Of a DNA stretch of 37,848 nucleotides, positions 68 to 25,053 are shown one piece after another. A program made the translations under genes and the position numbers. Every line of letters begins with the position of its first letter. Position 1 is the stretch's first letter. The DNA lies in the NCBI GenBank assembly GCA_902789445.1, contig CADAOB010000014.1, positions 5,756 through 43,603 on the forward strand, read 5' to 3'. The DNA is from an uncultured Bacteroidia bacterium. GTDB taxonomy: Bacteria > Bacteroidota > Bacteroidia > Bacteroidales > UBA932. A model generated the notes under the pieces. It saw only the letters and a list, made by a program, of their open reading frames with translations. It was not told the origin of the DNA and did no database searches.

Positions 68-1339
68 TTAACCACCGAAGTTGTCGTAGAGGATGCTTTC
101 GGGCGCGACACCGAGGGAATCGAGGAGCGCGTTGACGGAAGCGACCATCATCGGCGGACCGCACATGAAGTACTTGATGTCCTCCGGCGCTTCGTGGTTC
201 TTGAGATAGGTCTCGTTCATCACGTTGTGGACGAAACCGGCGGTGTATTTCACGCCGGCGGCATCGGCGGCCGGGTCGGGACGGTCGAGGGCCAGGTGGA
301 AATGGAAGTTCGGGAATTCATTCTCGATCTCCGCGAAATCCTCGAGGTAGAAGGCCTCGACGAGGGCGCGGGCACCGTAGAAGAAGTGAACTTCCCGCTT
401 GGTCTTGAGCGTCTTGAACAGGTGCATGATGTGGCTGCGGAGCGGAGCCATGCCGGCGCCGCCGCCCACGAAGATGTACTCCTGGCTGTCCGGATCGTCC
501 TTCGGGAGCAGGAACTCGCCGTAAGGACCGCTGATCCACACCTTGTCGCCCGGCTTGCGGGAGAACACGTAGGTGGAAGCGATGCCCGGAGGCACGGGCA
601 GCATCTTGAACACGCCCTTCGGCTGGCTGCGGTCGAACGGCGGCGTGGCGATACGCACGTTGAGTTTGATGACGTTCTTCTCGGCCGGATACGAAGCCAT
701 CGAGTAGGCACGGATGGTCGGAACGGTGTTCTTGTACTTGATGCCGAAGAAACCGTATTTCTCCCAGTCGGCCCGGTAGATGGGATCCACATCCATGTCG
801 GCGAAATCCACGTCATAGGCCGGGATGTCGATCTGGATGTATTCACCGCTCTTGAACTCAATATCCTCGCCTTCCGGCAGTTTGACGGTGAATTCCTTGA
901 TGAAGGTAGCCACGTTCTTGTTGGAGATGACCTCGCACTCGAGCTTCTTGACGCTGAGCGCGGAGTCGGGCACCTGGATCTTGAGGTTGTCCTTGACTTT
1001 CACCTGGCAGCCGAGACGCCAGTTGTCGGCGATCTGCTTGCGGGTGAAGAAGCCCGTCTCAGTGGGGAGGATCGATCCGCCGCCCTCGAGCACCTGGCAC
1101 TTGCACTGACCGCAGTTGCCCTTGCCGCCGCAGGCGGACGGCAGGAAGATCTTCTGCTCGGCCAGCGTGTTGAGCAGCGAGCCGCCCTGCGGCACGTCGA
1201 GCACTTTCTTGCCGCCGTTGATATCGATCTTGACGGTTCCCGAAGGGGTGAGTTTGATCTTGATGAACAGGAGCAGGGCCACGAGAATGAGCGTGACCAC
1301 GACAATCACGAGGATTGCTGCAAGAATCGTATTTGTCAT
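68..1339 (-). CDS. nqrF: Na+-translocating NADH:quinone reductase subunit F
   Basis: NqrF is the NADH-oxidising entry subunit of the sodium-pumping NADH:quinone reductase in the inner membrane. The 423-aa product starts with one membrane helix (about residues 5-27), then a plant-type [2Fe-2S] domain with Cys70, Cys76, Cys79 and Cys111, then a ferredoxin-reductase module with a flavin-binding region (RAYSMASYP) and an NAD-binding GGGAGMAPLRS motif, ending in an aromatic residue two from the C-terminus as in FNR proteins. Length is normal for the family (about 405-425). It is the last gene of the nqrABCDEF operon, 17 bases after nqrE, and is followed by a strong terminator. The product and start are secure. 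Confidence 0.97.
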   Translation of the reverse strand: MTNTILAAILVIVVVTLILVALLLFIKIKLTPSGTVKIDINGGKKVLDVPQGGSLLNTLAEQKIFLPSACGGKGNCGQCKCQVLEGGGSILPTETGFFTRKQIADNWRLGCQVKVKDNLKIQVPDSALSVKKLECEVISNKNVATFIKEFTVKLPEGEDIEFKSGEYIQIDIPAYDVDFADMDVDPIYRADWEKYGFFGIKYKNTVPTIRAYSMASYPAEKNVIKLNVRIATPPFDRSQPKGVFKMLPVPPGIASTYVFSRKPGDKVWISGPYGEFLLPKDDPDSQEYIFVGGGAGMAPLRSHIMHLFKTLKTKREVHFFYGARALVEAFYLEDFAEIENEFPNFHFHLALDRPDPAADAAGVKYTAGFVHNVMNETYLKNHEAPEDIKYFMCGPPMMVASVNALLDSLGVAPESILYDNFGG

Positions 1340-1356
1340 AGCTTATTCCTCCCTCC

Positions 1357-1971
1357 TTACAGTGAAATACCCATGAACGTCATGAAGGCCATACCCATCA
1401 GGCCCACCACCATGAAGGTGATGCCCAGGCCCTTGAGCGGAGCCGGTACCTTCGAGTAGGCCATCTTCTCGCGGATGGCGGCCAGGGCCACGATGGCCAG
1501 CCACCAGCCGATGCCCGAACCGAGCGCGTAGGAGGCAGCCTCGCCCACATTGAGGAACTCGCGCTGCTGCATGAAGAGCGAGCCGCCCAGGATGGCGCAG
1601 TTGACGGCGATCAGCGGCAGGAAGATACCCAGTGACGAATACAGGGCCGGCAGGAATTTCTCCACCACCATCTCGACGATCTGCACGAAGGCGGCGATCA
1701 CCGCGATGAAGAGGATGAAGCTCAGGAAACTCAGGTCCACGTCCGCGAACTTCGGTCCCAGCCAGGAAAGCGCGCCGGGCTGCAGGACATATTTGTCGAG
1801 CAGGTAGTTGAGCGGAAGCGTGAAAAGGAGCACGAAGATAACAGCAACACCCAAACCATTTGCTGTCTTGACATTTTTGGATACCGCCAGGTATGAGCAC
1901 ATACCCAGGAAGTATGCAAAAATCATATTGTCAACGAAAATTGACTTTACGAACAAGCTGATGTATTCCAT
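1357..1971 (-). CDS. nqrE: Na+-translocating NADH:quinone reductase subunit E
   Basis: NqrE is a six-helix inner-membrane subunit that, with NqrD, forms an inverted pair of homologous half-channels; the pair binds an iron cofactor in characterised enzymes. The 204-aa product begins [15 protein letters not shown] and contains [15 protein letters not shown], the helix carrying the conserved Cys, and a second Cys-bearing helix (VNCAILGG) in the other half. The protein is hydrophobic throughout, with length matching the family (about 200). It lies between nqrD and nqrF in the usual order with 17-19 base gaps. Confidence 0.97.
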
Positions 1972-1990
1972 ATCTGATTTGAGTTAAGTG

Positions 1991-2596
1991 TTATTTCTCC
2001 TGCAGGTCCTTCTGGATGGAGCGCTGGACCCAGACAATGCAGCCCAGGATGATCAGCGCCATCGGCGGAAGGATCACGAGGTTGTTGGGGACATAGCTGG
2101 CGGGCAGCACGCGCAAGCCGAAGAGGGTGCCGCTGCCGAGCAGTTCACGGAAGAAGGCCACGATGATCAGGATCATGCCGTAGCCGGCGCCGTTGGCCAG
2201 GCCGTCGAGCAGCGAGGGGATGGGTTTGTTGCCCAGGGCGAACGCCTCGATGCGGCCCATCACGATACAGTTGGTGATGATCAGGCCGATGTACACCGAA
2301 AGCTGCTTGTCGATGGCGTAGGCGTAAGCCTTGAGCACCTGGTCGACGAGGATCACCATCAGGGCGACCACCACCAGCTGCACGATGATGCGCACGCGGT
2401 TCGGAATCGAGTTGCGGAGCAGCGAGACCACGAAACTGGAGAGGCCCGTGACGATGATAACCGAAAGGGCCATCACGAAAGCACCCTTGAGCTGGACCGT
2501 GACGGCCAGCGAGGAGCAGATGCCGAGCACGAGGACCGTGATCGGGTTACCCTTGAAAATCGGGTTCAACAAGGTTTTCTTGAGATCTTCATTCAT
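1991..2596 (-). CDS. nqrD: Na+-translocating NADH:quinone reductase subunit D
   Basis: NqrD is the membrane partner of NqrE and shares its fold. The 201-aa product has six hydrophobic helices, with the expected conserved Cys segments VLGICSSLAVT and IITNCIVMGR in opposite halves. N-terminal MNEDLKKTLLNPIFKGNP is typical of the subunit. The start lies three bases after the nqrC stop, implying translational coupling. No anomalies seen. Confidence 0.97.
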   Translation of the reverse strand: MNEDLKKTLLNPIFKGNPITVLVLGICSSLAVTVQLKGAFVMALSVIIVTGLSSFVVSLLRNSIPNRVRIIVQLVVVALMVILVDQVLKAYAYAIDKQLSVYIGLIITNCIVMGRIEAFALGNKPIPSLLDGLANGAGYGMILIIVAFFRELLGSGTLFGLRVLPASYVPNNLVILPPMALIILGCIVWVQRSIQKDLQEK

Positions 2597-2599
2597 GGC

Positions 2600-3478
2600 T
2601 TAACCCTCCTGATGATTATGTTCGTGATCGTGGTGATGGTGCGCGTGGTCGTGACCATGGTCGTGATCGTGGTCATGGCCTTCGCAGCAGCCGTCTTCGC
2701 AGCAGCCGTCTTCGCAGCAGTCGTCACCAGTGGCGGCAGCGGCCTTCTTCTGGAGGAAAGGCATATAAGCCTTGGCCCAGGTATCGATGGCGGCATCCAG
2801 GCCGTTGCAGGTCATCGTGGCGCCCGTGATGGCGTCGATGGCACTGAGGTTGTCGGCGGGCGCACCACCCTTGACGATGTCGAACGGATTGTCGGGGTTG
2901 TCGAAATTGAGCTTCTTCCCCTTGAACTGTTCGCGGAACGAGGGCTCGTCCTTGATCTTGGCGCCAAGGCCCGGCGTCTCGCTGTCGTGGTCGAAATAGG
3001 CGCCAAGGATTTCCGTGCAGTCGGCATTGAAGGCCAGATAGCCCCAGATCGGGCCCCAGAGGCCTGCGCCGTAGCAGGGGATCACATTGATGTCCTGTCC
3101 GTCTTTTTCGAACACATAGACCGGAAGCGAAGGGTTTCCGTTCTGGATATTCTTGTTCTCAAGCTTCAGGTTGTCCTGGAGTTCGATGCCGGAGACCTCG
3201 GTCTCGAGTTCGCCGGTCTTGTTGCCTTCGGCGTCGATCAGGAAGGCGGTCTTGATGTTCTGGCTGTACATGGCCAGAACCTTGTCGTTGCCAAGTTTGG
3301 CAAGGTCTTCCTTGCTCGAGAAGCCCGCGGCCGTAAGCATCTGGCTGATGGTCTCCGCTTTGATGTTAGCCTGCTGCTTGGGCTTGAGCGCCATCGCCGC
3401 GATGGACAGGATGGCGGCCGCTACGACGACGATGAGCGTCGTGTAGACAATCGTATATACGTTGCTGTTGGTATTCAT
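2600..3478 (-). CDS. nqrC: Na+-translocating NADH:quinone reductase subunit C with Cys/His-rich C-terminal tail
   Basis: NqrC anchors a periplasmic FMN domain by one N-terminal helix (about residues 9-30). The covalent FMN site is visible as TGAT, residues 218-221, within AIDAITGATMT. The core ends near residue 248, where most homologues known to me stop. Here about 40 residues follow: three CC pairs (Cys254/255, 259/260, 264/265) spaced by EDG, then 13 histidines between residues 268 and 289 alternating mainly with Asp. The topology of characterised NqrC places this tail in the periplasm, so it should bind transition metals there; that role is inference. It overlaps no neighbour: nqrB ends two bases upstream and nqrD starts three bases downstream. 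The gene assignment is secure; the function of the tail is unknown. Confidence 0.95.
   Translation of the reverse strand: MNTNSNVYTIVYTTLIVVVAAAILSIAAMALKPKQQANIKAETISQMLTAAGFSSKEDLAKLGNDKVLAMYSQNIKTAFLIDAEGNKTGELETEVSGIELQDNLKLENKNIQNGNPSLPVYVFEKDGQDINVIPCYGAGLWGPIWGYLAFNADCTEILGAYFDHDSETPGLGAKIKDEPSFREQFKGKKLNFDNPDNPFDIVKGGAPADNLSAIDAITGATMTCNGLDAAIDTWAKAYMPFLQKKAAAATGDDCCEDGCCEDGCCEGHDHDHDHGHDHAHHHHDHEHNHQEG
2681..2725. repeat. Three tandem 15-bp repeats encoding the CC-EDG units of NqrC
   Basis: The unit TTCGCAGCAGCCGTC occurs at 2681-2695 and 2696-2710, and as a one-base variant at 2711-2725. It is in frame on the minus strand and encodes the repeated Cys-Cys-Glu-Asp-Gly block in the NqrC tail. 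Slipped-strand expansion could change the number of Cys pairs without breaking frame. Confidence 0.9.
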
Positions 3479-3480
3479 GG

Positions 3481-4659
3481 CTAGACGGTTTTAGCCCGCT
3501 TCAGGCGGCGGTTGACATTGGCGCTGACCACATAGTGGTCGATCAGCGGTGCAAAGGTGTTCATCAGCAGGATGGCCAGCATCATACCCTCCGGATAGCC
3601 CGGGTTGAAGAGACGGACCGTGATGCAGAGCGCACCGATCAGGAAACCGTAGATCCACTTGCCGGTCTCGGTCTGGGCCGAGGTGACCGGGTCGGTGGCC
3701 ATGAAGACGGTACCGAAGGCGAAGCCGCCCATCAGGAGCTGTTCCCAGCAAGGGATGTCGGTTACGCCGAACGAAGTGCCGAGCCAGCCCACGAAGAGGG
3801 CGCCCAGCACGGAGGAGCACATGATCTTCCAGCTGGCCACGCCGGTGCAAAGCAGGATGCACGCACCGATGAGGATGGCGATGACGCTCGTCTCACCGAC
3901 CGCACCGGGGATGTCGCCCAGGAAAAGGTTCCAGGCGCTGGTGCCAGCGGCGGACAGGCCGTCGAGGGAGGCGTGCGAAAGCGGGGTGGCACCCGAGAGG
4001 GCATCCACGACCTGGCCGCCCTTCCAGGGCGTTCCGCCGGCGAGGGCCTTGCTCAGGCCGCCGACCCAGATCGAGTCGCCAGACATCTTGCTCGGGTAGG
4101 AGAAGAACAGGAAGGCACGCGCCAGCAGCGCGGGATTCCAGATATTCATGCCGGTTCCGCCGAAGACTTCCTTGCCGATGATCACGGCAAAGGCGACGGC
4201 AATGGTCAGCATCCACCAGGGAACGTCGACCGGCACGATGAGCGGAATGATGAAACCGCTCACCAGATAGCCTTCGCTCACTTCGTGGCCTTTCATCTGG
4301 GCGGAAGCGAATTCGATGCCCAGGCCGACGATGTAGGAAATCAGGTAGAGCGGGATGATCTTCACGAAACCGTACCAGACCATCTGCCAGAAGCCCCAGC
4401 CCAGGCCGAAGACCTTGCTGTGCTGGAAACCGAGGTTCCAGATACCGAAGAGCAGGGCCGGCACCAGGGCGATCACCACGATGATCAGCAGGCGTTTCAG
4501 ATCGACGCAGTCCTTCACGTGCGTGCCGCCCCGGCGGGGCGTCGTACGCTTGGGAACGAAGAAGAAGGTCTCGAACGCATCGAACGAGGAATGGAGCCAA
4601 CTCAGTTTTCCGCCTTCGGAAAAGGTCGGCCGCACTTTATCGAAAAAATTCTTTGCCAT
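3481..4659 (-). CDS. nqrB: Na+-translocating NADH:quinone reductase subunit B
   Basis: NqrB is the largest membrane subunit; in characterised enzymes it carries a covalent FMN and riboflavin and forms the sodium path. The 392-aa product has a soluble N-terminal segment and about ten membrane helices. The FMN attachment motif SGAT lies at residues 222-225 (T225). The conserved EVFGGTGMNIWNPAL segment (about 164-178) is typical of the RnfD/NqrB family. It lies between nqrA and nqrC with gaps of 13 and 2 bases. Length agrees with the family (about 385-415). Confidence 0.97.
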   Translation of the reverse strand: MAKNFFDKVRPTFSEGGKLSWLHSSFDAFETFFFVPKRTTPRRGGTHVKDCVDLKRLLIIVVIALVPALLFGIWNLGFQHSKVFGLGWGFWQMVWYGFVKIIPLYLISYIVGLGIEFASAQMKGHEVSEGYLVSGFIIPLIVPVDVPWWMLTIAVAFAVIIGKEVFGGTGMNIWNPALLARAFLFFSYPSKMSGDSIWVGGLSKALAGGTPWKGGQVVDALSGATPLSHASLDGLSAAGTSAWNLFLGDIPGAVGETSVIAILIGACILLCTGVASWKIMCSSVLGALFVGWLGTSFGVTDIPCWEQLLMGGFAFGTVFMATDPVTSAQTETGKWIYGFLIGALCITVRLFNPGYPEGMMLAILLMNTFAPLIDHYVVSANVNRRLKRAKTV

Positions 4660-4672
4660 TGCGGGTTCCTCC

Positions 4673-6019
4673 TTACATTTCTTTCATCATCAGTTCAATG
4701 CCTTCGCGGACGATCTTCTGGATCTCGACCTTCGAAGGGCAGACATATTCGCAGAGCGCGACATCTTCCTCGATGACCTCGTAGATGCCGAGCTGCTCCA
4801 TCTTGTCGAGGTCGCCGGCGAGGCAGGCCTTGAAGAGGTAGAGCGGGTAGATGTCCATCGGGAGCACCTTGTTGTAAACATCGTTCATCAGGAACGGGCG
4901 TTCACCGCCGTTCTCGTTGGTGTCCATCTCATATTTCTTGCGGCGCAGGAAGGCCGGATAGGCATGCGAAACGGAGAATTTCTTGCTGCGCAGCGGATTG
5001 ATCCAGCCGAACATCTCGTAGTAGTTGCCTTCCTTGAGCACGCTCACCTGGTCGTGATAGAATCCCAGGAAGCCGTCGGGACCGACAGCCTCACCCGAAA
5101 GGACGTCACCGCTAATGATGCGCACTTCGTCCTCCCCGAAGAAAGCGGCCAGGTCTTTCATGCAGACGCCGGCGGGAACTTCCGCATAGGAAGGATTCTT
5201 GGCGGCAGGGCCCGCGACCGCAATCGTGCGGTGGGCGTCATACACGCCTTTGAGGAAGAAGCGTCCGATGACGGCCACGAGCGGGAGGCTGACCGTCCAC
5301 ACCACTTCCCCTTTGTTGATGGGGCTGATGTGGTTGATCTGGACGCCCACGTTGCCGGCCGGATGCGGCCCTTCGAACTGATGGAATATCACGCCGCTGA
5401 GCTTGTGGAACTCGCTGCCGGCGTAGTTCTTCGACGAAAGGGAGAGGTGGACGCCGCCTTTGGTCAAACGGCCGAGGGCGTCGATGCCTGCCTGCACGGC
5501 GGCAAGATCCTCTTTCAGGGTGAAATCCCAGTCGGCGCCGAGGGGCGCCGTATTCATCGCCGAAATGAAGATGGCCTTGGGTTCGGCCGCGGGATCGGCC
5601 ACGGTACCGAACGGGCGCTGCTTGAGGCAGGGCCAGAGGCCGGCCTGGAGCAGGAGGTCTGTCATCCCTTTCTTGTCGAGCGAGGCAGCCTTGGGCACGT
5701 CAAACTTGACAGCGTCATTCTTTCCGTCGGCTTTCACGCGCACTTCGAGAAGCTTGCGCTTGTCACCGCGGACGACCGCGTCAACCGTACCGCTGACCGG
5801 CGAGCAGAACACCATCTCGGGGCACTTCTTGTCGGCGAAAAGCGGCGTTCCCGCCTTGACGGCGTCACCCTCCTTGACCAGGAGGCGGGGCACCATGCCG
5901 CGGAAATCAGTCGGTTTGACAGCCACCAGACCCGGAGCAACCCGACGGGTCACCTCGCAAAGGGCCGCTCCCGCAATGGGAAGATCCAGGCCCTTTTTCA
6001 ATCTGATCTGATCTGACAT
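4673..6019 (-). CDS. nqrA: Na+-translocating NADH:quinone reductase subunit A
   Basis: NqrA is the cytoplasmic-side subunit of the Na+-NQR complex and has an Rnf-C-like fold. The start at 6019 gives MSDQIRLKKGLDLPIAGAA, matching the conserved NqrA N-terminus, in preference to an upstream in-frame ATG at 6064 that would add 15 unrelated residues and overlap the promoter. The resulting 448 aa match the usual length. The conserved PALVAVKP-like region reads VAPGLVAVKPTDF here. It is the first gene of the operon; a TAnnTTTG box ends about 43 bases upstream of the start. Confidence 0.97.
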   Translation of the reverse strand: MSDQIRLKKGLDLPIAGAALCEVTRRVAPGLVAVKPTDFRGMVPRLLVKEGDAVKAGTPLFADKKCPEMVFCSPVSGTVDAVVRGDKRKLLEVRVKADGKNDAVKFDVPKAASLDKKGMTDLLLQAGLWPCLKQRPFGTVADPAAEPKAIFISAMNTAPLGADWDFTLKEDLAAVQAGIDALGRLTKGGVHLSLSSKNYAGSEFHKLSGVIFHQFEGPHPAGNVGVQINHISPINKGEVVWTVSLPLVAVIGRFFLKGVYDAHRTIAVAGPAAKNPSYAEVPAGVCMKDLAAFFGEDEVRIISGDVLSGEAVGPDGFLGFYHDQVSVLKEGNYYEMFGWINPLRSKKFSVSHAYPAFLRRKKYEMDTNENGGERPFLMNDVYNKVLPMDIYPLYLFKACLAGDLDKMEQLGIYEVIEEDVALCEYVCPSKVEIQKIVREGIELMMKEM

Positions 6020-6061
6020 TGAAATTATTGTGTTAATAGTAAATGTTTTACAAAAGTGGGG

Positions 6062-6069
6062 CAAAGATA
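6062..6069 (-). promoter_or_regulatory. -7 element of the nqr operon promoter
   Basis: TATCTTTG on the minus strand matches the Bacteroidetes -7 consensus TAnnTTTG exactly. The predicted transcription start is near 6058, giving a 5' UTR of about 40 bases before nqrA. No clear -33 TTTG lies about 19 bases upstream, but the region there is A/T-rich. Confidence 0.7.
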
Positions 6070-6110: not shown

Positions 6111-8663
6111 ATGAACAATTCGCAAACAGACCTGTTCGAAGGGTTGAACAGCGCGCAGAAAGCCGCTGTCCAGTGTACGGAAGGCCCCTCGCTGATCATC
6201 GCGGGAGCCGGTTCCGGAAAGACAAGGGTGCTGACCTGCCGGGTCGCACATATTTTGGAGGGAGACTGCAGGCCTGGTGAGGTGATGGCCCTGACATTCA
6301 CCAAGAAGGCGGCAGGAGAAATGAAGGAGCGCGTGGCACGGCTCGTCGGCGAGCGGAAGGCGCGGTGGATCCAGATGGGCACCTTTCATTCGATCTTTAT
6401 CCGTTTCCTGCGGGAATATGCCGACCGGCTCGGCTATCCCGAACACTTCACCATCTACGACCAGACCGACTCCCGGAGCGTCATCAAACAATGCATCAAG
6501 GAGCTGGAACTGGATGACAAGAACTACAAGCCCGCGGTGGTGCAGAGCGCCATCTCGCGGGCCAAGAACGATCTGCTGACCGTTAACGGCTACCGGGCCG
6601 ACGTCGAGTCGATGGAGCGCGACCAGGCCGCCCGGCGCCCCCGCCTGGCCGACGTCTATGCGCTCTACCAGCAGAAATGCCTGGCGGCCGGCGCCATGGA
6701 TTTCGACGACATCCTCCTGCAGATGAACATCCTGCTCAAACGCTTCCCCGATGCCTGCCAATCCATCGCGGGCCGTTTCCGCTACATCCTCGTGGACGAG
6801 TACCAGGACACCAACCGGGCCCAGTATCTCATCCTGCGCCGCCTGGCCGAGCCGCATCACAACCTCTGCGTGGTGGGCGACGACTCCCAGAGCATCTACG
6901 GCTTCCGCGGCGCCCGGATCGAAAACATCCTGCGTTTCAAGCAGGACTATCCCGAGGCGAAGGAATTCCGTCTGGAGCAGAATTACCGCTCCACGCAGAC
7001 CATCGTCGAGGCCGCCAACAGCCTGATCGCGCACAACGAAAGGCGCCTGCAGAAGAAATGCTTCTCGCAGGCGGGCAAAGGCGAGCCGATCGGCGTGATC
7101 AAGGCCTACACCGAAAGCGAGGAGGCCCACCTGATCGCATCCGCCATCGTCGAGCGCATCTACAGCACGAAAGCCTCGTACGACAGCTTCGCCATCCTCT
7201 ATCGGACCAACGCCCAGTCGCGCGCCTTCGAGGAAGCGCTGCGCAAACGGAATCTCCCCTACCGTATCTACGGCGGACATTCCTTCTACGAGCGGGCCGA
7301 GATCAAGGACATGCTCGCCTACTTCAAGCTGGCCGTCAATCCGCAGGACAACGAGTCCTTCCGCCGGGTGATCAACGTGCCGGCCCGCGGCATCGGCGAT
7401 ACCACCATCGAGCGCCTGTCCGCCGCAGCTTCGACTGCCGGCTGTCCGCTCTACAACGCACCGCTGCTGGAAAACGAAAAGCTCTATGCCGTAGGCTTGA
7501 AAGACACCGCCATCAAGAAGCTGCGGGATTTCGTCGCGATGATGGAACCGCTGGCCGAAATGACGGAGACGAGCGACTGCTACGAACTGGCCGCCCGGAT
7601 CGGCGACGCCACCGGCTACCTGCTCTCGCTCAAGAACGACAACTCCCCGGAAGGCCTCGGCCGCTTCGAAAACGTGGAGGAACTGTTCAACAGCATCAAG
7701 GAGTACAGCGAAGAAGAGGCCGAGATGCGCCAGGTGCTCGCCGAAGACGGCGAGGAAGCGGTCGATACGACCGTCACCCTGGGCGATTACCTCGAGAACA
7801 TCTACCTGCTGAGCGAGGCGGAAAAAGACGACACCCAGGATCCCGACCGCGACCAGACCAACAAGATCGTCCTGATGACGGTCCACGCGGCCAAAGGCCT
7901 GGAGTTCCCCTATGTCTTTATCGCCGGCATGGAGGAGAACCTCTTCCCCTCGGAAAGCATGAACGACACGCCCGACAAGATCGAGGAAGAGCGGCGGCTC
8001 TTCTACGTAGCCCTCACCCGGGCGGAAAAAGCCGTCACCGTATCGTATTCCCAGAACCGGCGGAAATGGGGCAGCGAAGAATCGAACCGGCCTTCGCGCT
8101 TCCTCAGGGAAATCGACCGGCAATACTACGCCATCGAACCCGACAGCGACGAGAACCGCTACGACCCGTTCCCGCAGACCCGCTTCGGCCGCTCGGATTT
8201 CGAGACCTTCCGCCGGCCGTCGGCCGGACGCGGAACCTCGTCCGCCGGCTGGCAGTCTGCGTCTTCCGGCTGGCAGTCTGGGGCCTCCGGACGGCAGTCG
8301 CCGTCTTCCGGACGGGGATACGCCGGTGGAAGCTATTCCGGCGGGAATCCGGCCGGAGGCCGCCCCGCCGCTGGCCGACCGACGTCAGGTTCGGCGGCTG
8401 CCAGCCGCCCCACTGCCGGCAGTCCAGCGACGGGAAGCCGCCCCACCTCTCGCCCGGCGGCTGCGCATACGCCCAGCCCGGGCTTCGCTCCCTCCCCCGT
8501 CGCCGACCTGCAGGTCGGCCAGCGCGTCGAGCACGACCGCTTCGGTTACGGGACCATCCTCTCGATGGAAGGCGACGGTCTCAACCGGAAAGCCGTCGTC
8601 AGCTTCGAAAACAGTGGAGAAAAGACACTTCTGCTAAAATTTGCTAAACTTCGCATCGTTTAA
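6111..8663 (+). CDS. UvrD/PcrA-family ATP-dependent 3'-5' DNA helicase
   Basis: This is a superfamily 1A helicase used in nucleotide excision repair, recombination control and replication restart. The 850-aa product has the Q-motif start LNSAQKAAV, Walker A AGAGSGKT (residues 31-38), motif Ia ALTFTKKAA, Walker B VDEYQDTN (about 226-233), motif III GDDSQSIYGFRGA, motif IV QNYRST, motif V TVHAAKGLEFPYVFIAG (about 590) and motif VI VALTRAEK. After residue about 700 comes a low-complexity Ser/Gly/Ala/Arg/Pro linker with repeated GWQS-like units, then a Tudor-like C-terminal domain (VGQRVEHDRFGYG to the end), as in PcrA/UvrD. PcrA and UvrD cannot be separated with certainty from sequence alone. 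It stands alone, divergent from nqr. Confidence 0.95.
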   Translation: MNNSQTDLFEGLNSAQKAAVQCTEGPSLIIAGAGSGKTRVLTCRVAHILEGDCRPGEVMALTFTKKAAGEMKERVARLVGERKARWIQMGTFHSIFIRFLREYADRLGYPEHFTIYDQTDSRSVIKQCIKELELDDKNYKPAVVQSAISRAKNDLLTVNGYRADVESMERDQAARRPRLADVYALYQQKCLAAGAMDFDDILLQMNILLKRFPDACQSIAGRFRYILVDEYQDTNRAQYLILRRLAEPHHNLCVVGDDSQSIYGFRGARIENILRFKQDYPEAKEFRLEQNYRSTQTIVEAANSLIAHNERRLQKKCFSQAGKGEPIGVIKAYTESEEAHLIASAIVERIYSTKASYDSFAILYRTNAQSRAFEEALRKRNLPYRIYGGHSFYERAEIKDMLAYFKLAVNPQDNESFRRVINVPARGIGDTTIERLSAAASTAGCPLYNAPLLENEKLYAVGLKDTAIKKLRDFVAMMEPLAEMTETSDCYELAARIGDATGYLLSLKNDNSPEGLGRFENVEELFNSIKEYSEEEAEMRQVLAEDGEEAVDTTVTLGDYLENIYLLSEAEKDDTQDPDRDQTNKIVLMTVHAAKGLEFPYVFIAGMEENLFPSESMNDTPDKIEEERRLFYVALTRAEKAVTVSYSQNRRKWGSEESNRPSRFLREIDRQYYAIEPDSDENRYDPFPQTRFGRSDFETFRRPSAGRGTSSAGWQSASSGWQSGASGRQSPSSGRGYAGGSYSGGNPAGGRPAAGRPTSGSAAASRPTAGSPATGSRPTSRPAAAHTPSPGFAPSPVADLQVGQRVEHDRFGYGTILSMEGDGLNRKAVVSFENSGEKTLLLKFAKLRIV

Positions 8664-21203: not shown

Positions 21204-21729
21204 TAAAAGGCGCGCGGGCGTCTTTCTCGGAAAGAATCACCTCGTCGGGCGAAATGCCCCAGTCGATGGCGAAGAAAGGGTCGTTCCAGCGGTACGATCC
21301 CTCCGCCTGGGGCGCGTAATAATTATCGCATTTATAGACAAACAGCGTGTCGTCTTCCAGCACCAGGAATCCGTGGGCGAAGCCGCGCGGAATGAAGAAC
21401 TGGCGCTTGTTCTCTCCGCTCAGTTCCACGGCCACGTGACGGCCGAAGGTCGGCGATCCGGGCCGGATATCCACGGCCACGTCGAGCACCTTGCCGCGCA
21501 CCACGCGCAGCAGCTTGGCTTGCGCCGCCTCCCCTTTCTGGAAATGCAGGCCGCGCAGCACGCCCCGCCGGGCGGAGTAAGATTCATTGTCCTGCACGAA
21601 ATCCACCGGGCCGGCGTGGGCCACGAAATCCCGCAGGGAGAATGATTCGAAAAAATACCCGCGATGGTCTCCGAATACCCGCGGTTCGAGGATCAGCGGA
21701 CCTTCTATATCAGTTTTCAGGTAATTCAT
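21178..21729 (-). CDS. rfbC: dTDP-4-dehydrorhamnose 3,5-epimerase
   Basis: RfbC (RmlC) epimerises the 4-keto sugar ahead of RfbD. The 183-aa cupin protein shows RGVLRGLHFQ with active-site His62, DVAVDIRPGSPTFG, FFIPRGFAHGF and the end-of-family segment YYAPQAEGSYRWNDPFFAIDW. Length is standard. It is convergent with rfbD, the two stops lying inside each other's coding sequence; co-expression must therefore rely on separate promoters, both of which have -7 boxes. Confidence 0.95.
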   Translation of the reverse strand: MNYLKTDIEGPLILEPRVFGDHRGYFFESFSLRDFVAHAGPVDFVQDNESYSARRGVLRGLHFQKGEAAQAKLLRVVRGKVLDVAVDIRPGSPTFGRHVAVELSGENKRQFFIPRGFAHGFLVLEDDTLFVYKCDNYYAPQAEGSYRWNDPFFAIDWGISPDEVILSEKDARAPFIKDASDSL

Positions 21730-21750
21730 CGTTTTTACTTAACAACTGTA

Positions 21751-21758
21751 CAAAGATA
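21751..21758 (-). promoter_or_regulatory. -7 element of rfbC
   Basis: TATCTTTG on the minus strand, exact consensus; predicted start near 21747, 5' UTR about 18 bases. Back to back with the flavoprotein -7 box, 12 bp away. Confidence 0.7.
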
Positions 21759-21770
21759 CGCTTATTTTCC

Positions 21771-21778
21771 TAACTTTG
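21771..21778 (+). promoter_or_regulatory. -7 element of the fused flavoprotein gene
   Basis: TAACTTTG matches the consensus; predicted start near 21782, 5' UTR about 23 bases before the ATG at 21805. Confidence 0.65.
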
Positions 21779-21804
21779 TAGGGATTTGCCAACAAAACAC
21801 TTCT

Positions 21805-24800
21805 ATGTACAAAATAACATCCCACCCGATCCTGGATATCCCCGAAGAGGATCTCCACGAATTTCTCTTTGAAGGTAAGACGGTCCGCGGCCAGAAGGGC
21901 CAGACCATCGCAGCGGCCCTGCACCAGGCCGGTTTCCCGGTCCACCACCACAGCCTGAAAGACCGCAAGCGCACCATGGAGTGCGGCATCGGCAAGTGCG
22001 GCGCCTGCGAAATGCTCGTGGACGGGCATATCCGGCGCATCTGCATCACCAAGATCGACGGCATCCGGGAAGTCCGGCGCGTCGGCAAGGAGAGTTTCTC
22101 GCTGGTGGACAGCAGCACCACCCGGCAGCAGGACAAGAAAAAGGTCTATCGTACGGCCGTAGCCATCATCGGCGCGGGTCCGGCGGGTCTCGCCGTCCGC
22201 GAGGAACTCAACAAAGCGGGCATCGACAACCTGGTGCTCGACAACAACGACGCCATCGGCGGCCAGTTCCAGATGCAGACGCACCAGTTCTTCTTCTTCG
22301 AAAAAGAGCAGAAATTCGGTGGGATGCGCGGTTTCGACATCGCCAAGACCCTGGCCGGCGATTCGCTGGAAGGCATCATGCTCAACTGTGTGGTCTGGGA
22401 TATTCTGGAAGGCAAGCGGCTGGCCGTCAAGAATGTCGTCTCGCAGGAAATCTTCTATGTCGATGCCGAGCAGCTGGTGGTGGCCGCCGGTGCCCTGCCC
22501 TTCATGCCGGCCTTCAAGAACGACGACCTGCCGGGCGTGTTCACCGCCGCCGTGGTGCAGCGGATGATGAACAAGGAATTCACCCTGCTGGGCAGGAACA
22601 TCCTCACGGTGGGTGCCGGCAACATCGGCTACCTGACCTCCTACCAGGCCATGCAGGCCGGCGCCAGGGTCAAGGCCATCATCGAGGCCATGCCCCACGA
22701 AGGCGGCTTCCCCGTCCAGGCCAACCGGCTCCGCCGGCTCGGCGTACCGATCATGACCTCCTATACGCTGGTGGAAGCCATCCCCAATGAAGACTGGACC
22801 GGCGTAACCGGCGCCATCATCGCCAAATGTGAAAACTTCAAGCCGGTTCCGGGAACGGAAGTCCGCATCGACGGGATCGACTGCATCAATATCTGCACCG
22901 GCCTGCTGCCCGACAGCCAGCTCCTGCGCAAAGGCAGCGAAATCTTCGGCACCGCCTGCCACGGCGTCGGCGATGCCGTGCGCATCGGCGAAGGCACCTC
23001 CGCCGTGCTGCGCGGCCGCCAGTGCGCCTTCGAGATCCAGCAGGCGCTCGGCCGCCGGATCGACTACAATGCCTATCTGGCCGTTTCGAAAGAATACATC
23101 GACTCCCAGCAGCGGCCGCAGCGCTTGCTCGACGAGCCCCGCAAGCCTTCGGCCGAACGCATGCGCAAAGGCGGCTTCGTGATCGCCGACTGCCTCTACG
23201 GATTCGCCTGCAACCCCTGCTCGTTCGCCTGCAAGCAGGGCGCCATCACCAAGAGTTCCACCTCCGTCACGCCGACCATCGACTTCGACAAGTGCATCGG
23301 CTGCATGGAATGCGTGGCCCACTGCCCCGGCCTGGCCATTTTCGGCTACCGGCCCGAGAAGCGGCAGATCTTCCTCCCCGTCGAATTCGCGGTGGAGGCC
23401 GGCGCCGAAGTGTTCCTGGTGGACGACAATGGCCGGAAAGTGGGCGAAGGCGTCATCGAACGCCTCATCCGCAAGCCCAACAAGACCAACGTGGCCGTGG
23501 TCAAGGCCGGAAAGATCTACGCCGGCGACAGCGACGAGGCCCTGCTCGAAGCGCACGGCTTCATCGTCAAGGACCAGTATCCCGAGCCGCTCGAGATGAA
23601 TCCCACCGAACTCAACGACGACTTCACCTACATCTGCCACTGCGAAGACGTGCGCCTGCGGGACCTGCTCGCCCTGCTCAAGGGCCGCACCAGCATCACG
23701 GCGCAGGAACTCAAGCATATCTCCCGCCTGGGCATGGGCCCTTGCCGCGGCACGCGCTGCCTGCCGCGCGCCAAGCAGGCCCTGAGCGCCTACGGCATCC
23801 AGATCACCGGCGACTTCACGCCCCGCGGCCCGATGGCCAACCTCGTGGAGATCGGCAACGTGACCAATCCTTCGCGCCAGGTCGAGCTGATCACCAATCC
23901 CAAGTGCACCGATGTGGAGATCCACCGCGTGGGCGCCTTCGTGGCGGGCGGCGGCATGGCCGGCACGGCCCTGTTCCGCTACCTGGCCGAAGCCGGGTTC
24001 AAACCCGTGCTGGTCAACAACGAGCACGGCAGTTCCTGGCGCTGCATCGCCGGCGGTCGTCCCGCCTTCTCGCTGCCGGCCCTGGCCGACATCGCGACCC
24101 ACAACCTGGAGATTTTCCGCAGCGTCCAGGCCCTGCGCAACATCGACCTGAAGATGACGCGCTATGTGAACTTCGTCCACGACGAAGAGACCTACCGTTC
24201 GCTGGACGCCTCCCGGGCCTGGTCGAATGCCTATATGGTGGACAAAAAGGATTTCGCCAAAGAGATCTCGCCGTACATCAATCCGGACCTCAACCTCTAC
24301 AGCCACGCCCTGATCTCGCTCGACTGCTGGCAGGCTACGCCGGGCAAGACCATCGACACGGTCCGCCAGCTGGGCATCCAGGCCGGCGGCCAGGTCTTCG
24401 AAGACACCGAAGTCATCCACGTCGAGAAGAACGGCGGCCTCTACCGCATCACCGTGCGGACCCGCGCGGGACGCTACGTGCGCTATGAGACCGAGGTGTT
24501 CGTCAATGCGATGGGTGCCGGCGCCGAGAAGTTCGCCCGGCAGCTGGGCATCGAAACCGGCCTGTATCCGGTGCGGCACCAGGCTTTCATCACCAAGCGC
24601 CTGCCGCTCATCGGCAAGGACGGCGACTCGCTCGACATGCTCATCGACCGTCGCCATTACAAGGGCTTCTCGGCCGTCTATGGCCAGCAGCTGGCCGAGA
24701 CCGGCCAGATCATCGGCTGCGCCTCCCCGGCCCAGGATGCGACCGACGCCGCCAAGAACCTGAAGGTCAACACGCAGGAATTCCTGGAGATTGCCTCGGA

Positions 24801-25053
24801 AGTCTTCACCGAATGGATCCCGCAGCTCAAGGGAATGAGTTTCCAGGCCACCTGGTGCGGCTACTACACGGAACCGCGTTACATCATCGACCCGTCGCTC
24901 GGCCTGTTCGTCGGCATGCGCGGCCACGGCTTCATGCTTTCGCAGTATATTGCCAAGCTGTATGTGGACGCCCTGTTGGGCCGGCCGGTCCCCGACTATT
25001 TCAAGGACCTGGCCCTCGGCGGCAGCGGCCTGAGCGAGAACGCGTTCAAGTAG
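21805..25053 (+). CDS. Fused multi-domain iron-sulfur flavoprotein, putative proline/hydroxyproline-type dehydrogenase
   Basis: One 1082-aa chain joins modules that are separate subunits in HcnABC-type enzymes and archaeal dye-linked L-proline dehydrogenases. In order: a plant-type [2Fe-2S] domain (Cys60, 65, 68, 80); an FAD/NAD(P) disulfide-reductase-like domain with GAGPAG (123-128) and a second nucleotide motif GAGNIG (270-275); two [4Fe-4S] sites (Cys463, 469, 472, 476 and Cys497, 500, 503, 507); a BFD-type [2Fe-2S] site (Cys611, 613, 647, 652); and a D-amino-acid-oxidase-like FAD domain beginning GGGMAG (715-720) and running to the end. No signal peptide is seen, so it is cytoplasmic. 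The start MYKITSHP follows a -7 box; the frame upstream crosses that promoter. The P5C dehydrogenase gene nearby suggests that the substrate is proline or hydroxyproline; other imino or amino acids, or glycine, remain possible. Confidence 0.85.
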   Translation: MYKITSHPILDIPEEDLHEFLFEGKTVRGQKGQTIAAALHQAGFPVHHHSLKDRKRTMECGIGKCGACEMLVDGHIRRICITKIDGIREVRRVGKESFSLVDSSTTRQQDKKKVYRTAVAIIGAGPAGLAVREELNKAGIDNLVLDNNDAIGGQFQMQTHQFFFFEKEQKFGGMRGFDIAKTLAGDSLEGIMLNCVVWDILEGKRLAVKNVVSQEIFYVDAEQLVVAAGALPFMPAFKNDDLPGVFTAAVVQRMMNKEFTLLGRNILTVGAGNIGYLTSYQAMQAGARVKAIIEAMPHEGGFPVQANRLRRLGVPIMTSYTLVEAIPNEDWTGVTGAIIAKCENFKPVPGTEVRIDGIDCINICTGLLPDSQLLRKGSEIFGTACHGVGDAVRIGEGTSAVLRGRQCAFEIQQALGRRIDYNAYLAVSKEYIDSQQRPQRLLDEPRKPSAERMRKGGFVIADCLYGFACNPCSFACKQGAITKSSTSVTPTIDFDKCIGCMECVAHCPGLAIFGYRPEKRQIFLPVEFAVEAGAEVFLVDDNGRKVGEGVIERLIRKPNKTNVAVVKAGKIYAGDSDEALLEAHGFIVKDQYPEPLEMNPTELNDDFTYICHCEDVRLRDLLALLKGRTSITAQELKHISRLGMGPCRGTRCLPRAKQALSAYGIQITGDFTPRGPMANLVEIGNVTNPSRQVELITNPKCTDVEIHRVGAFVAGGGMAGTALFRYLAEAGFKPVLVNNEHGSSWRCIAGGRPAFSLPALADIATHNLEIFRSVQALRNIDLKMTRYVNFVHDEETYRSLDASRAWSNAYMVDKKDFAKEISPYINPDLNLYSHALISLDCWQATPGKTIDTVRQLGIQAGGQVFEDTEVIHVEKNGGLYRITVRTRAGRYVRYETEVFVNAMGAGAEKFARQLGIETGLYPVRHQAFITKRLPLIGKDGDSLDMLIDRRHYKGFSAVYGQQLAETGQIIGCASPAQDATDAAKNLKVNTQEFLEIASEVFTEWIPQLKGMSFQATWCGYYTEPRYIIDPSLGLFVGMRGHGFMLSQYIAKLYVDALLGRPVPDYFKDLALGGSGLSENAFK

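What the first reader, a model, noticed from the sequence alone, without database searches (positions are those of the whole stretch)
2603..2725. NqrC with a periplasmic Cys-pair and poly-His tail
The NqrC core ends near residue 248, yet the frame continues with three CC pairs in tandem EDG-spaced repeats and 13 His within 22 residues. Known NqrC topology puts this in the periplasm. A metal-binding tail on a respiratory sodium pump is not something I know to be described. It could store or buffer Zn, Ni or Cu, supply metal to another protein, or tune the pump by metal status. The 15-bp DNA repeats allow rapid length change.
Basis: partly seen in the sequence, partly recalled or inferred. Interest (0 to 1): 0.72.

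Follow-up and report, generated by a model that had tools for sequence, protein, structure and literature searches.

The report
Metal-binding-like tail on NqrC
A sodium-pumping respiratory enzyme of a gut (probably rumen) bacterium carries a floppy tail crowded with cysteines and histidines; related bacteria seem to have gained such tails several times, which suggests a useful, still untested, metal-holding job outside the cell membrane.

Summary
NqrC (2600-3478, minus strand, 292 aa) has an ordinary core (NCBIfam nqrC, residues 4-244) and then a tail with three CC pairs and 13 His in 22 residues. It is no assembly error: of 30 NqrC loci fetched from the genus, own copy included, 28 have tails with 4-11 Cys. 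In 192 distinct NqrC sequences tail Cys counts are bimodal: 0-2 in 150, 3 in none, 4-15 in 42. A tree of 58 cores needs 8 changes of the trait, at least 7 forced by well-supported branches; repeated gain is likeliest. Cys and His are the best-kept tail residues. The tail is predicted disordered.

Best explanation: a disordered periplasmic chelator of soft or borderline metals, like SlyD tails, buffering metals near a pump known to be silver-sensitive. Metal binding and benefit are inferred. Rivals: thiol redox, iron supply in place of NqrM, repeat-slippage filler. The conserved C-terminal QEG may reflect the nqrD ribosome-binding site. Nine literature searches found no description. New variant of a known kind.

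The parts
2600..3478 (-). nqrC, 292 aa plus stop; Na+-translocating NADH:quinone reductase subunit C
   Evidence: TIGR01938 186.7 bits, residues 4-244; Foldseek hits 8ad0_C, 7xk3_C and 3lwx
2732..3478 (-). NqrC core: N-terminal helix, FMN-binding domain with TGATMT (T221 aligns with the FMN-bearing T225 of V. cholerae), last helix 221-249
   Evidence: T225, alignment
2603..2731 (-). C-terminal tail, residues 250-292: 6 Cys, 13 His, 14 Asp/Glu, no Lys or Arg, none of F W Y I L M V; predicted disordered
   Evidence: composition; mean pLDDT 37-55 per block
2684..2719 (-). Cys block CCEDGCCEDGCC (residues 254-265)
2680..2725 (.). 15-bp tandem repeat, 3.1 copies, coding the Cys block
   Evidence: Tandem Repeats Finder
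2612..2677 (-). His block, residues 268-289, 13 His in 22
2605..2610 (-). AGGAGG inside the last codons of nqrC, 8 nt before the nqrD ATG: possible ribosome-binding site of nqrD
   Evidence: also in the main-clade relatives shown whose tail ends QEG
68..6064 (-). nqrABCDEF operon (A 4673-6064, B 3481-4659, C 2600-3478, D 1991-2596, E 1357-1971, F 68-1339)
   Evidence: a subunit-specific NCBIfam match over cut-off for each of the six

Best explanation
The tail is a disordered, metallothionein/SlyD-like chelating appendage on the periplasmic domain of NqrC. Cys thiolates, alternating His and Asp/Glu bind several soft or borderline metal ions (Zn2+, Cu+, Ni2+, Cd2+, Ag+) at the outer face of the pump. 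It most likely acts as a local metal sponge or buffer that protects NQR, and perhaps the surrounding periplasm, from metals. Selection keeps ligand number and composition rather than exact order. Shown here: the tail, its recurrence, its composition, predicted disorder, retention of Cys and His. Established by others: periplasmic place of the NqrC domain, and silver sensitivity of NQR. Inferred: metal binding, which metal, and the benefit.
For: Core and operon are normal NQR. The NqrC domain carrying the tail is periplasmic in V. cholerae (PMC12174285 and PMC10643135, passages). Tail Cys counts are bimodal. After the first Cys the 45 distinct tail-bearing sequences are 19.6% Cys, 11.1% His, 24.8% Asp+Glu, 14.4% Gly and 0.3% aromatic. 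At least 7 changes of the trait are forced on the 58-core tree. Identity at aligned tail positions in three clades is 0.80 for Cys and 0.78 for His, against 0.21-0.59 for the other residues with more than 100 comparisons. His-rich runs of the same look occur in the same genus in a CobW/ZigA-like GTPase and a CDF transporter, families whose names tie them to metals. E. coli SlyD has an unstructured tail rich in His, Cys, Asp and Glu and binds up to 7 Ni(II) (PMC7055735, passages). NADH:quinone activity of membranes of the rumen bacterium Prevotella bryantii is half-inhibited at about 0.75 uM AgNO3 (PMC6560451, passages). The RnfG paralogue of the same genome (TIGR01947, 140.6 bits, cut-off 102) has no such tail.
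Against: No metal binding was or could be tested. Two same-genus NqrC loci (L021, L023) and all 107 fetched loci of 18 other genera of the family do without it. Tails of g31 other than L194 have Cys and no His, others have 2 Cys and several His, so there is no single ligand set. No metal-transport or metal-regulator gene was among the 17 window proteins scanned; not every ORF was scanned, and the contig left of the window was not looked at. The silver data are from membranes, and the silver target is recalled to be cytoplasmic NqrF, so a periplasmic tail would protect only by lowering periplasmic metal. Prevotella, where silver was tested, has a short tail-less NqrC (210 aa), so silver sensitivity does not by itself call for a tail. 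Alignment scoring rewards Cys matches and may inflate Cys retention. Low pLDDT in the tail also reflects a thin alignment there.
Confidence: 0.5

Rival explanations
1. Thiol redox tail: the CC pairs are reversible dithiol/disulfide groups within reach of the NqrC FMN, linking the periplasmic thiol state (or an electron outlet) to the pump.
For: The tail follows directly on the helix that starts at the FMN threonine T221 (residues 221-249). Cys is the commonest tail residue after the first Cys and some tails are Cys-only. The main clade also has a Cys three residues after the FMN threonine (C224).
Against: His, Asp and Glu enrichment is not needed for redox. Core Cys 135/154/224 do not track the tail outside one clade. 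No CXXC motif is common to the tails (by eye).
Confidence: 0.13
2. Maturation aid: the tail collects iron for the NqrD/NqrE [2Fe-2S] cluster, doing the job of NqrM, which this lineage seems to lack.
For: PF04400 (NqrM) gave 0 of 41 genomes, own included. NqrM seems to be required for inserting the cluster in V. cholerae (PMC12174285 passage).
Against: NqrM was not found in 16 genomes of other families either. G002 (same genus, L023) and G044 (another family, L276) have neither an NqrM match nor a Cys tail, so lack of NqrM does not predict a tail. The NqrM search had no positive control that rang. A Cys/His mix suits Zn, Cu or Ni better than Fe(II) (general knowledge).
Confidence: 0.08
3. Neutral filler: the NqrC C-terminus tolerates low-complexity expansions by repeat slippage, and Cys/His-rich tails are one chance outcome.
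For: A 15-bp tandem repeat codes the Cys block. Other genera have long tails without Cys, rich in Ala/Gln/Pro or Glu/Arg/Ala (g25 and two of g35). Tail length varies widely.
Against: Bimodal Cys counts, repeated appearance with unlike arrangements, Cys and His best kept among tail residues, mixed synonymous codons in the tails: TGC/TGT 240/56 and CAC/CAT 97/73.
Confidence: 0.17
4. Nickel or zinc reservoir feeding a specific metalloenzyme (storage and delivery, as proposed for the SlyD tail).
For: Resemblance to SlyD and UreE tails.
Against: No partner gene is fused or seen among the window proteins scanned, apart from a Peptidase_M14 (zinc carboxypeptidase) ORF 9 kb away with no sign of a link; a periplasmic store would need its own uptake partner.
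Confidence: 0.07

Closest known systems
Canonical NqrC (V. cholerae 7xk3/8ad0; Parabacteroides 3lwx)
   Same: Core fold, N-terminal anchor, FMN threonine motif, operon place
   Different: In 7xk3, 9u5g, 3lwx and 4u9s the match ends at residue 243-244. The 4xa7 chain matches on to residue 283, but its end there is [24 protein letters not shown]-like, which I take for an expression tag, not a natural tail. 4xhf matches to 251; its alignment was not shown
SlyD C-terminal metal-binding tail (E. coli, H. pylori)
   Same: Unstructured, C-terminal, rich in His/Cys/Asp/Glu, variable between species (PMC7055735 passages)
   Different: On a peptidyl-prolyl isomerase tied to hydrogenase maturation, not on a periplasmic flavin subunit of a pump
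UreE His-rich C-terminal tail
   Same: C-terminal, His-rich; binds most of the nickel yet is not needed for delivery in K. aerogenes (PMC7055735 passages)
   Different: The tail printed there has no Cys; urease chaperone
Bacterial metallothioneins
   Same: Cys-rich, almost no aromatic residues (tail; metallothionein side recalled)
   Different: Free-standing small folded proteins (recalled); this is a tail
NqrM (DUF539)
   Same: NQR accessory for the membrane [2Fe-2S] cluster; conserved Cys recalled
   Different: Separate protein; no PF04400 match in this protein

Membership tests
NqrC (TIGR01938) | Score over curated cut-off | tested here: met
   186.7 bits, cut-off 144
NqrC (TIGR01938) | FMN-binding domain with the S/TGATxT flavinylation motif | tested here: met
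   PF04205 58.3 bits, cut-off 22; TGATMT, T221 and T223 invariant in 34 sequences; flavinylation itself not testable
NqrC (TIGR01938) | Place between nqrB and nqrD in a full nqrABCDEF operon | tested here: met
NqrC (TIGR01938) | Periplasmic topology | not testable with these tools
   Follows from homologues; N-terminal helix predicted
SlyD-type Cys/His metal-binding tail | Unstructured C-terminal tail rich in His, Cys, Asp, Glu | tested here: met
   (disorder predicted only)
SlyD-type Cys/His metal-binding tail | Binds several Ni or Zn ions | not testable with these tools
   needs a bench assay
SlyD (protein family) | FKBP-type isomerase domain | tested here: not met
   Pfam gives only FMN_bind over its cut-off
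Metallothionein | Small free-standing Cys-rich metal-binding protein | tested here: not met
   tail of a 292-aa protein with an N-terminal helix
NqrM / DUF539 | PF04400 domain | tested here: not met
   no match

The most novel reading that the evidence does not exclude
The NqrC tail is a periplasmic metal or thiol sensor-brake: by binding metal (or forming disulfides) it changes the swing of the NqrC domain between NqrD/E and NqrB, so that several lineages of one Bacteroidales family have independently made their sodium pump respond to periplasmic metal or redox state.
Probability: 0.1. Interest if true: 0.8.

Novelty: new variant of a known kind. Interest (0 to 1): 0.5.

Why it matters
If the tail binds metal, a respiratory ion pump doubles as a periplasmic metal buffer, a combination not described in the papers that my searches listed. 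Repeated gain of unlike Cys/His-rich tails at one protein terminus in one bacterial family would be a clean case of convergent evolution of disordered metal-binding segments. It would also give a natural handle (metal load of the tail) for asking how NqrC movement is controlled; a recent review says the energetics of that movement are not yet understood (PMC12174285, passage).

Tried and rejected
Assembly or sequencing error: rejected, since other assemblies of the genus carry tails. Tail as compensation for loss of NqrM: weak, because NqrM was not detected in 41 genomes, 16 of them of other families (the control set did not ring either, so absence is not proven). Conserved C-terminal QEG as a protein motif: not accepted, because it codes AGGAGG 8 nt before the nqrD ATG; a GGAG-type site lies at the end of nqrC in 38 of 52 tail-bearing and 51 of 150 tail-less loci. 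Core Cys 135/154/224 as partners of the tail: C224 is Cys in 21 of 45 tail-bearing and 3 of 147 tail-less distinct sequences, C154 in 20 and 10, C135 in 20 and 36; for C224 this is mainly one clade, so I do not take it as linkage. A PDB sequence search with the tail alone gave 0 matches, uninformative for low complexity. DNA patterns for CC-spacer-CC gave 46+49 matches in the own genome against 31+40 for the reversed pattern, so they give no count of other Cys-rich proteins; only 30 of those 95 were looked at in frame. The 23 other HxHxHxH matches in the own assembly look like non-coding frames or have no ORF of 80 aa, judged by eye. Host: of the 14 tail-bearing contigs, 7 titles name a ruminant, 3 bear RUG (recalled to mean rumen) and 4 name no host; sampling is biased and I did not use it. 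Sampling limits: of 273 family genomes with a match, I fetched 123 loci outside the genus (two genomes gave two each); genera g24, g27, g29 and g37 were not looked at, g38 by 4 loci plus L284; G056 (g18) and, in the genus, G019 and G025 matched but were not fetched. L281 of another family has 3 Cys in its tail plus one in the helix before it, under my rule of 4, so I do not count it.

Full report
OBSERVATION. The window holds a complete nqrABCDEF operon on the minus strand, each subunit over the cut-off of its NCBIfam model. NqrC (2600-3478) has 292 residues; the family model ends at residue 244. AlphaFold2 on 47 sequences (window plus 46 loci) gives a confident core (21 of the first 25 ten-residue blocks above 90), a last helix at 221-249, and block means of 37-55 from residue 251 on. 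Its best structural matches are solved NqrC chains. The tail, residues 250-292, holds 6 Cys in three CC pairs, 13 His, 14 Asp/Glu, no Lys or Arg, and none of F, W, Y, I, L, M, V. The Cys block is coded by a 15-bp tandem repeat.

REAL AND RECURRENT. The same-genus search matched 36 of 40 genomes, own included. I fetched 30 NqrC loci from them; 28 have tails with 4 to 11 Cys and 2 (L021, L023) have none. Of the 29 other than the window's, 16 also have 4 or more His. Family-wide, 273 of 299 genomes matched TIGR01938; I fetched 123 loci from outside the genus. Cys-rich tails occur in g18 (2 of 2 fetched) and g31 (7 of 14, plus L194 with 2 Cys and 6 His), and in none of 107 loci of 18 other genera. 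Four genera were not looked at. A scan of public genomes gave 49 loci, of which 14 are tail-bearing by my rule of at least 4 Cys, or at least 6 Cys plus His. That scan was seeded partly with the tail's own peptide, and 7 of the 14 (L032-L038) have the contig length and tail of loci already counted. In total 52 of 202 sequences (45 of 192 distinct) are tail-bearing. One oddity: L194, filed under g31, matches L038 in contig length and tail, and L038 groups with the main g1 clade, so that bin may hold a foreign contig.

OUTSIDE THE FAMILY. At order level 124 of 149 genomes matched. I looked at 21 loci (L264-L284), chosen mainly for long or odd frames; one (L284) belongs to the window's own family. 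None reaches 4 Cys in the tail; L281 comes closest with 3. At phylum level 50 of 247 matched and 30 loci were given; in the 29 other than the window's, none had more than 1 Cys after the FMN motif.

SELECTION. Tail Cys counts in 192 distinct sequences are 0-2 in 150, 3 in none and 4-15 in 42. A FastTree of 188 cores needs 8 changes of the trait, 5 forced by starred branches (one short row, L180, dropped). A careful IQ-TREE of 58 chosen rows (26 tail-bearing, 32 not) also needs 8, 7 forced, and none of 200 bootstrap trees needs only one. Parsimony cannot tell gain from loss, but the tails of different lineages share no arrangement that I can see, which favours repeated gain. In three clades (29 sequences) aligned tail positions keep Cys at 0.80 and His at 0.78, against 0.25 for Ala, 0.45 for Asp, 0.52 for Glu, 0.56 for Gly and 0.59 for Asn and Gln. 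The alignment rewards Cys matches, so this is supportive, not decisive.

A CAUTION ABOUT THE END. The most constant part of the tail in the main clade, QEG, is coded CAG GAG GG, giving AGGAGG 8 nt before the nqrD start. That constancy may come from the ribosome-binding site. Bacteroidota are recalled to rely little on such sites, so this too is inference.

CONTROLS. The RnfG paralogue of the same genome lacks a tail. Among 30 gene-like ORFs of the window picked by codon-position GC, none of the 29 others has more than 3 Cys or 3 His in its last 40 residues. Elsewhere in the genus His-rich runs are found in a CobW/ZigA-like GTPase, below the ZigA and CobW cut-offs, and in a CDF transporter, over the CDF superfamily cut-off but below that of ZitB.

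MECHANISM. The NqrC domain is periplasmic and swings between NqrD/E and NqrB during turnover in V. cholerae (PMC12174285 and PMC10643135, passages). A disordered chain after the last helix would ride on that domain. The composition matches known chelating tails, SlyD above all (PMC7055735, passages). NQR is silver-sensitive: half-maximal inhibition near 0.75 uM AgNO3 in Prevotella bryantii membranes (PMC6560451, passages). I therefore rate a local metal buffer or sponge as most likely (0.5). Metal identity, affinity and benefit are unknown. Thiol redox, iron supply, storage for a client and neutral filler remain open, with the weights given.

LITERATURE. Searches for NqrC with C-terminal and histidine-rich (0 papers), with NqrM, with cysteine, periplasmic and zinc, with metal-binding and tail, with cysteine-rich, and for NQR with C-terminal extension and Bacteroides (27 held, 20 listed) showed no paper that describes such a tail in its title or the abstract start listed. 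Searches looked for background. I read passages only of PMC10979944, PMC12174285, PMC7055735, PMC10643135 and PMC6560451; the C-terminal extension in PMC10979944 concerns another protein. The library is open-access only.

VERDICT. Ordinary subunit, unusual and recurrent tail of a known biochemical type in a place I found no report of. New variant of a known kind.

Noticed in passing
window 2594-2614: The last codons of nqrC contain AGGAGG 8 nt upstream of the nqrD ATG; the conserved QEG C-terminus of the main clade may be an RNA-level feature.
   Followed up: yes
L155, L162, L164, L166, L173, L183, L188, L202 (g25); L182, L203 (g35): NqrC of other genera carries long low-complexity tails without Cys (Ala/Gln/Pro-rich, or Glu/Arg/Ala-rich): the NqrC C-terminus looks like a hot spot for added tails.
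   Followed up: partly
L281: An NqrC from another family of the order has a short tail with 3 Cys (a fourth lies in the helix before it), possibly a further independent case.
   Followed up: partly
L285 216-1427; L295 535-1755: CobW/ZigA-like GTPase of the same genus with an Asp run followed by alternating His-Asp and a poly-His stretch.
   Followed up: partly
L286 64-999; L291 921-1862: CDF transporter of the same genus with a poly-His N-terminus and a short Cys/His-containing C-terminus.
   Followed up: partly
window 8239-8311: 21-bp tandem repeat coding a Ser/Gly-rich stretch in the C-terminal part of a UvrD/PcrA-like helicase (6111-8663).
   Followed up: no
window 21664-25053: 1129-aa ORF that combines Fer2_4, Pyr_redox_2, Fer4 and DAO domains, an apparent fused oxidoreductase.
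   Followed up: no
L194 and L038: Contigs of equal length with the same NqrC tail; filed under genus code g31 but grouping with the main g1 clade: possible binning error or transfer.
   Followed up: no
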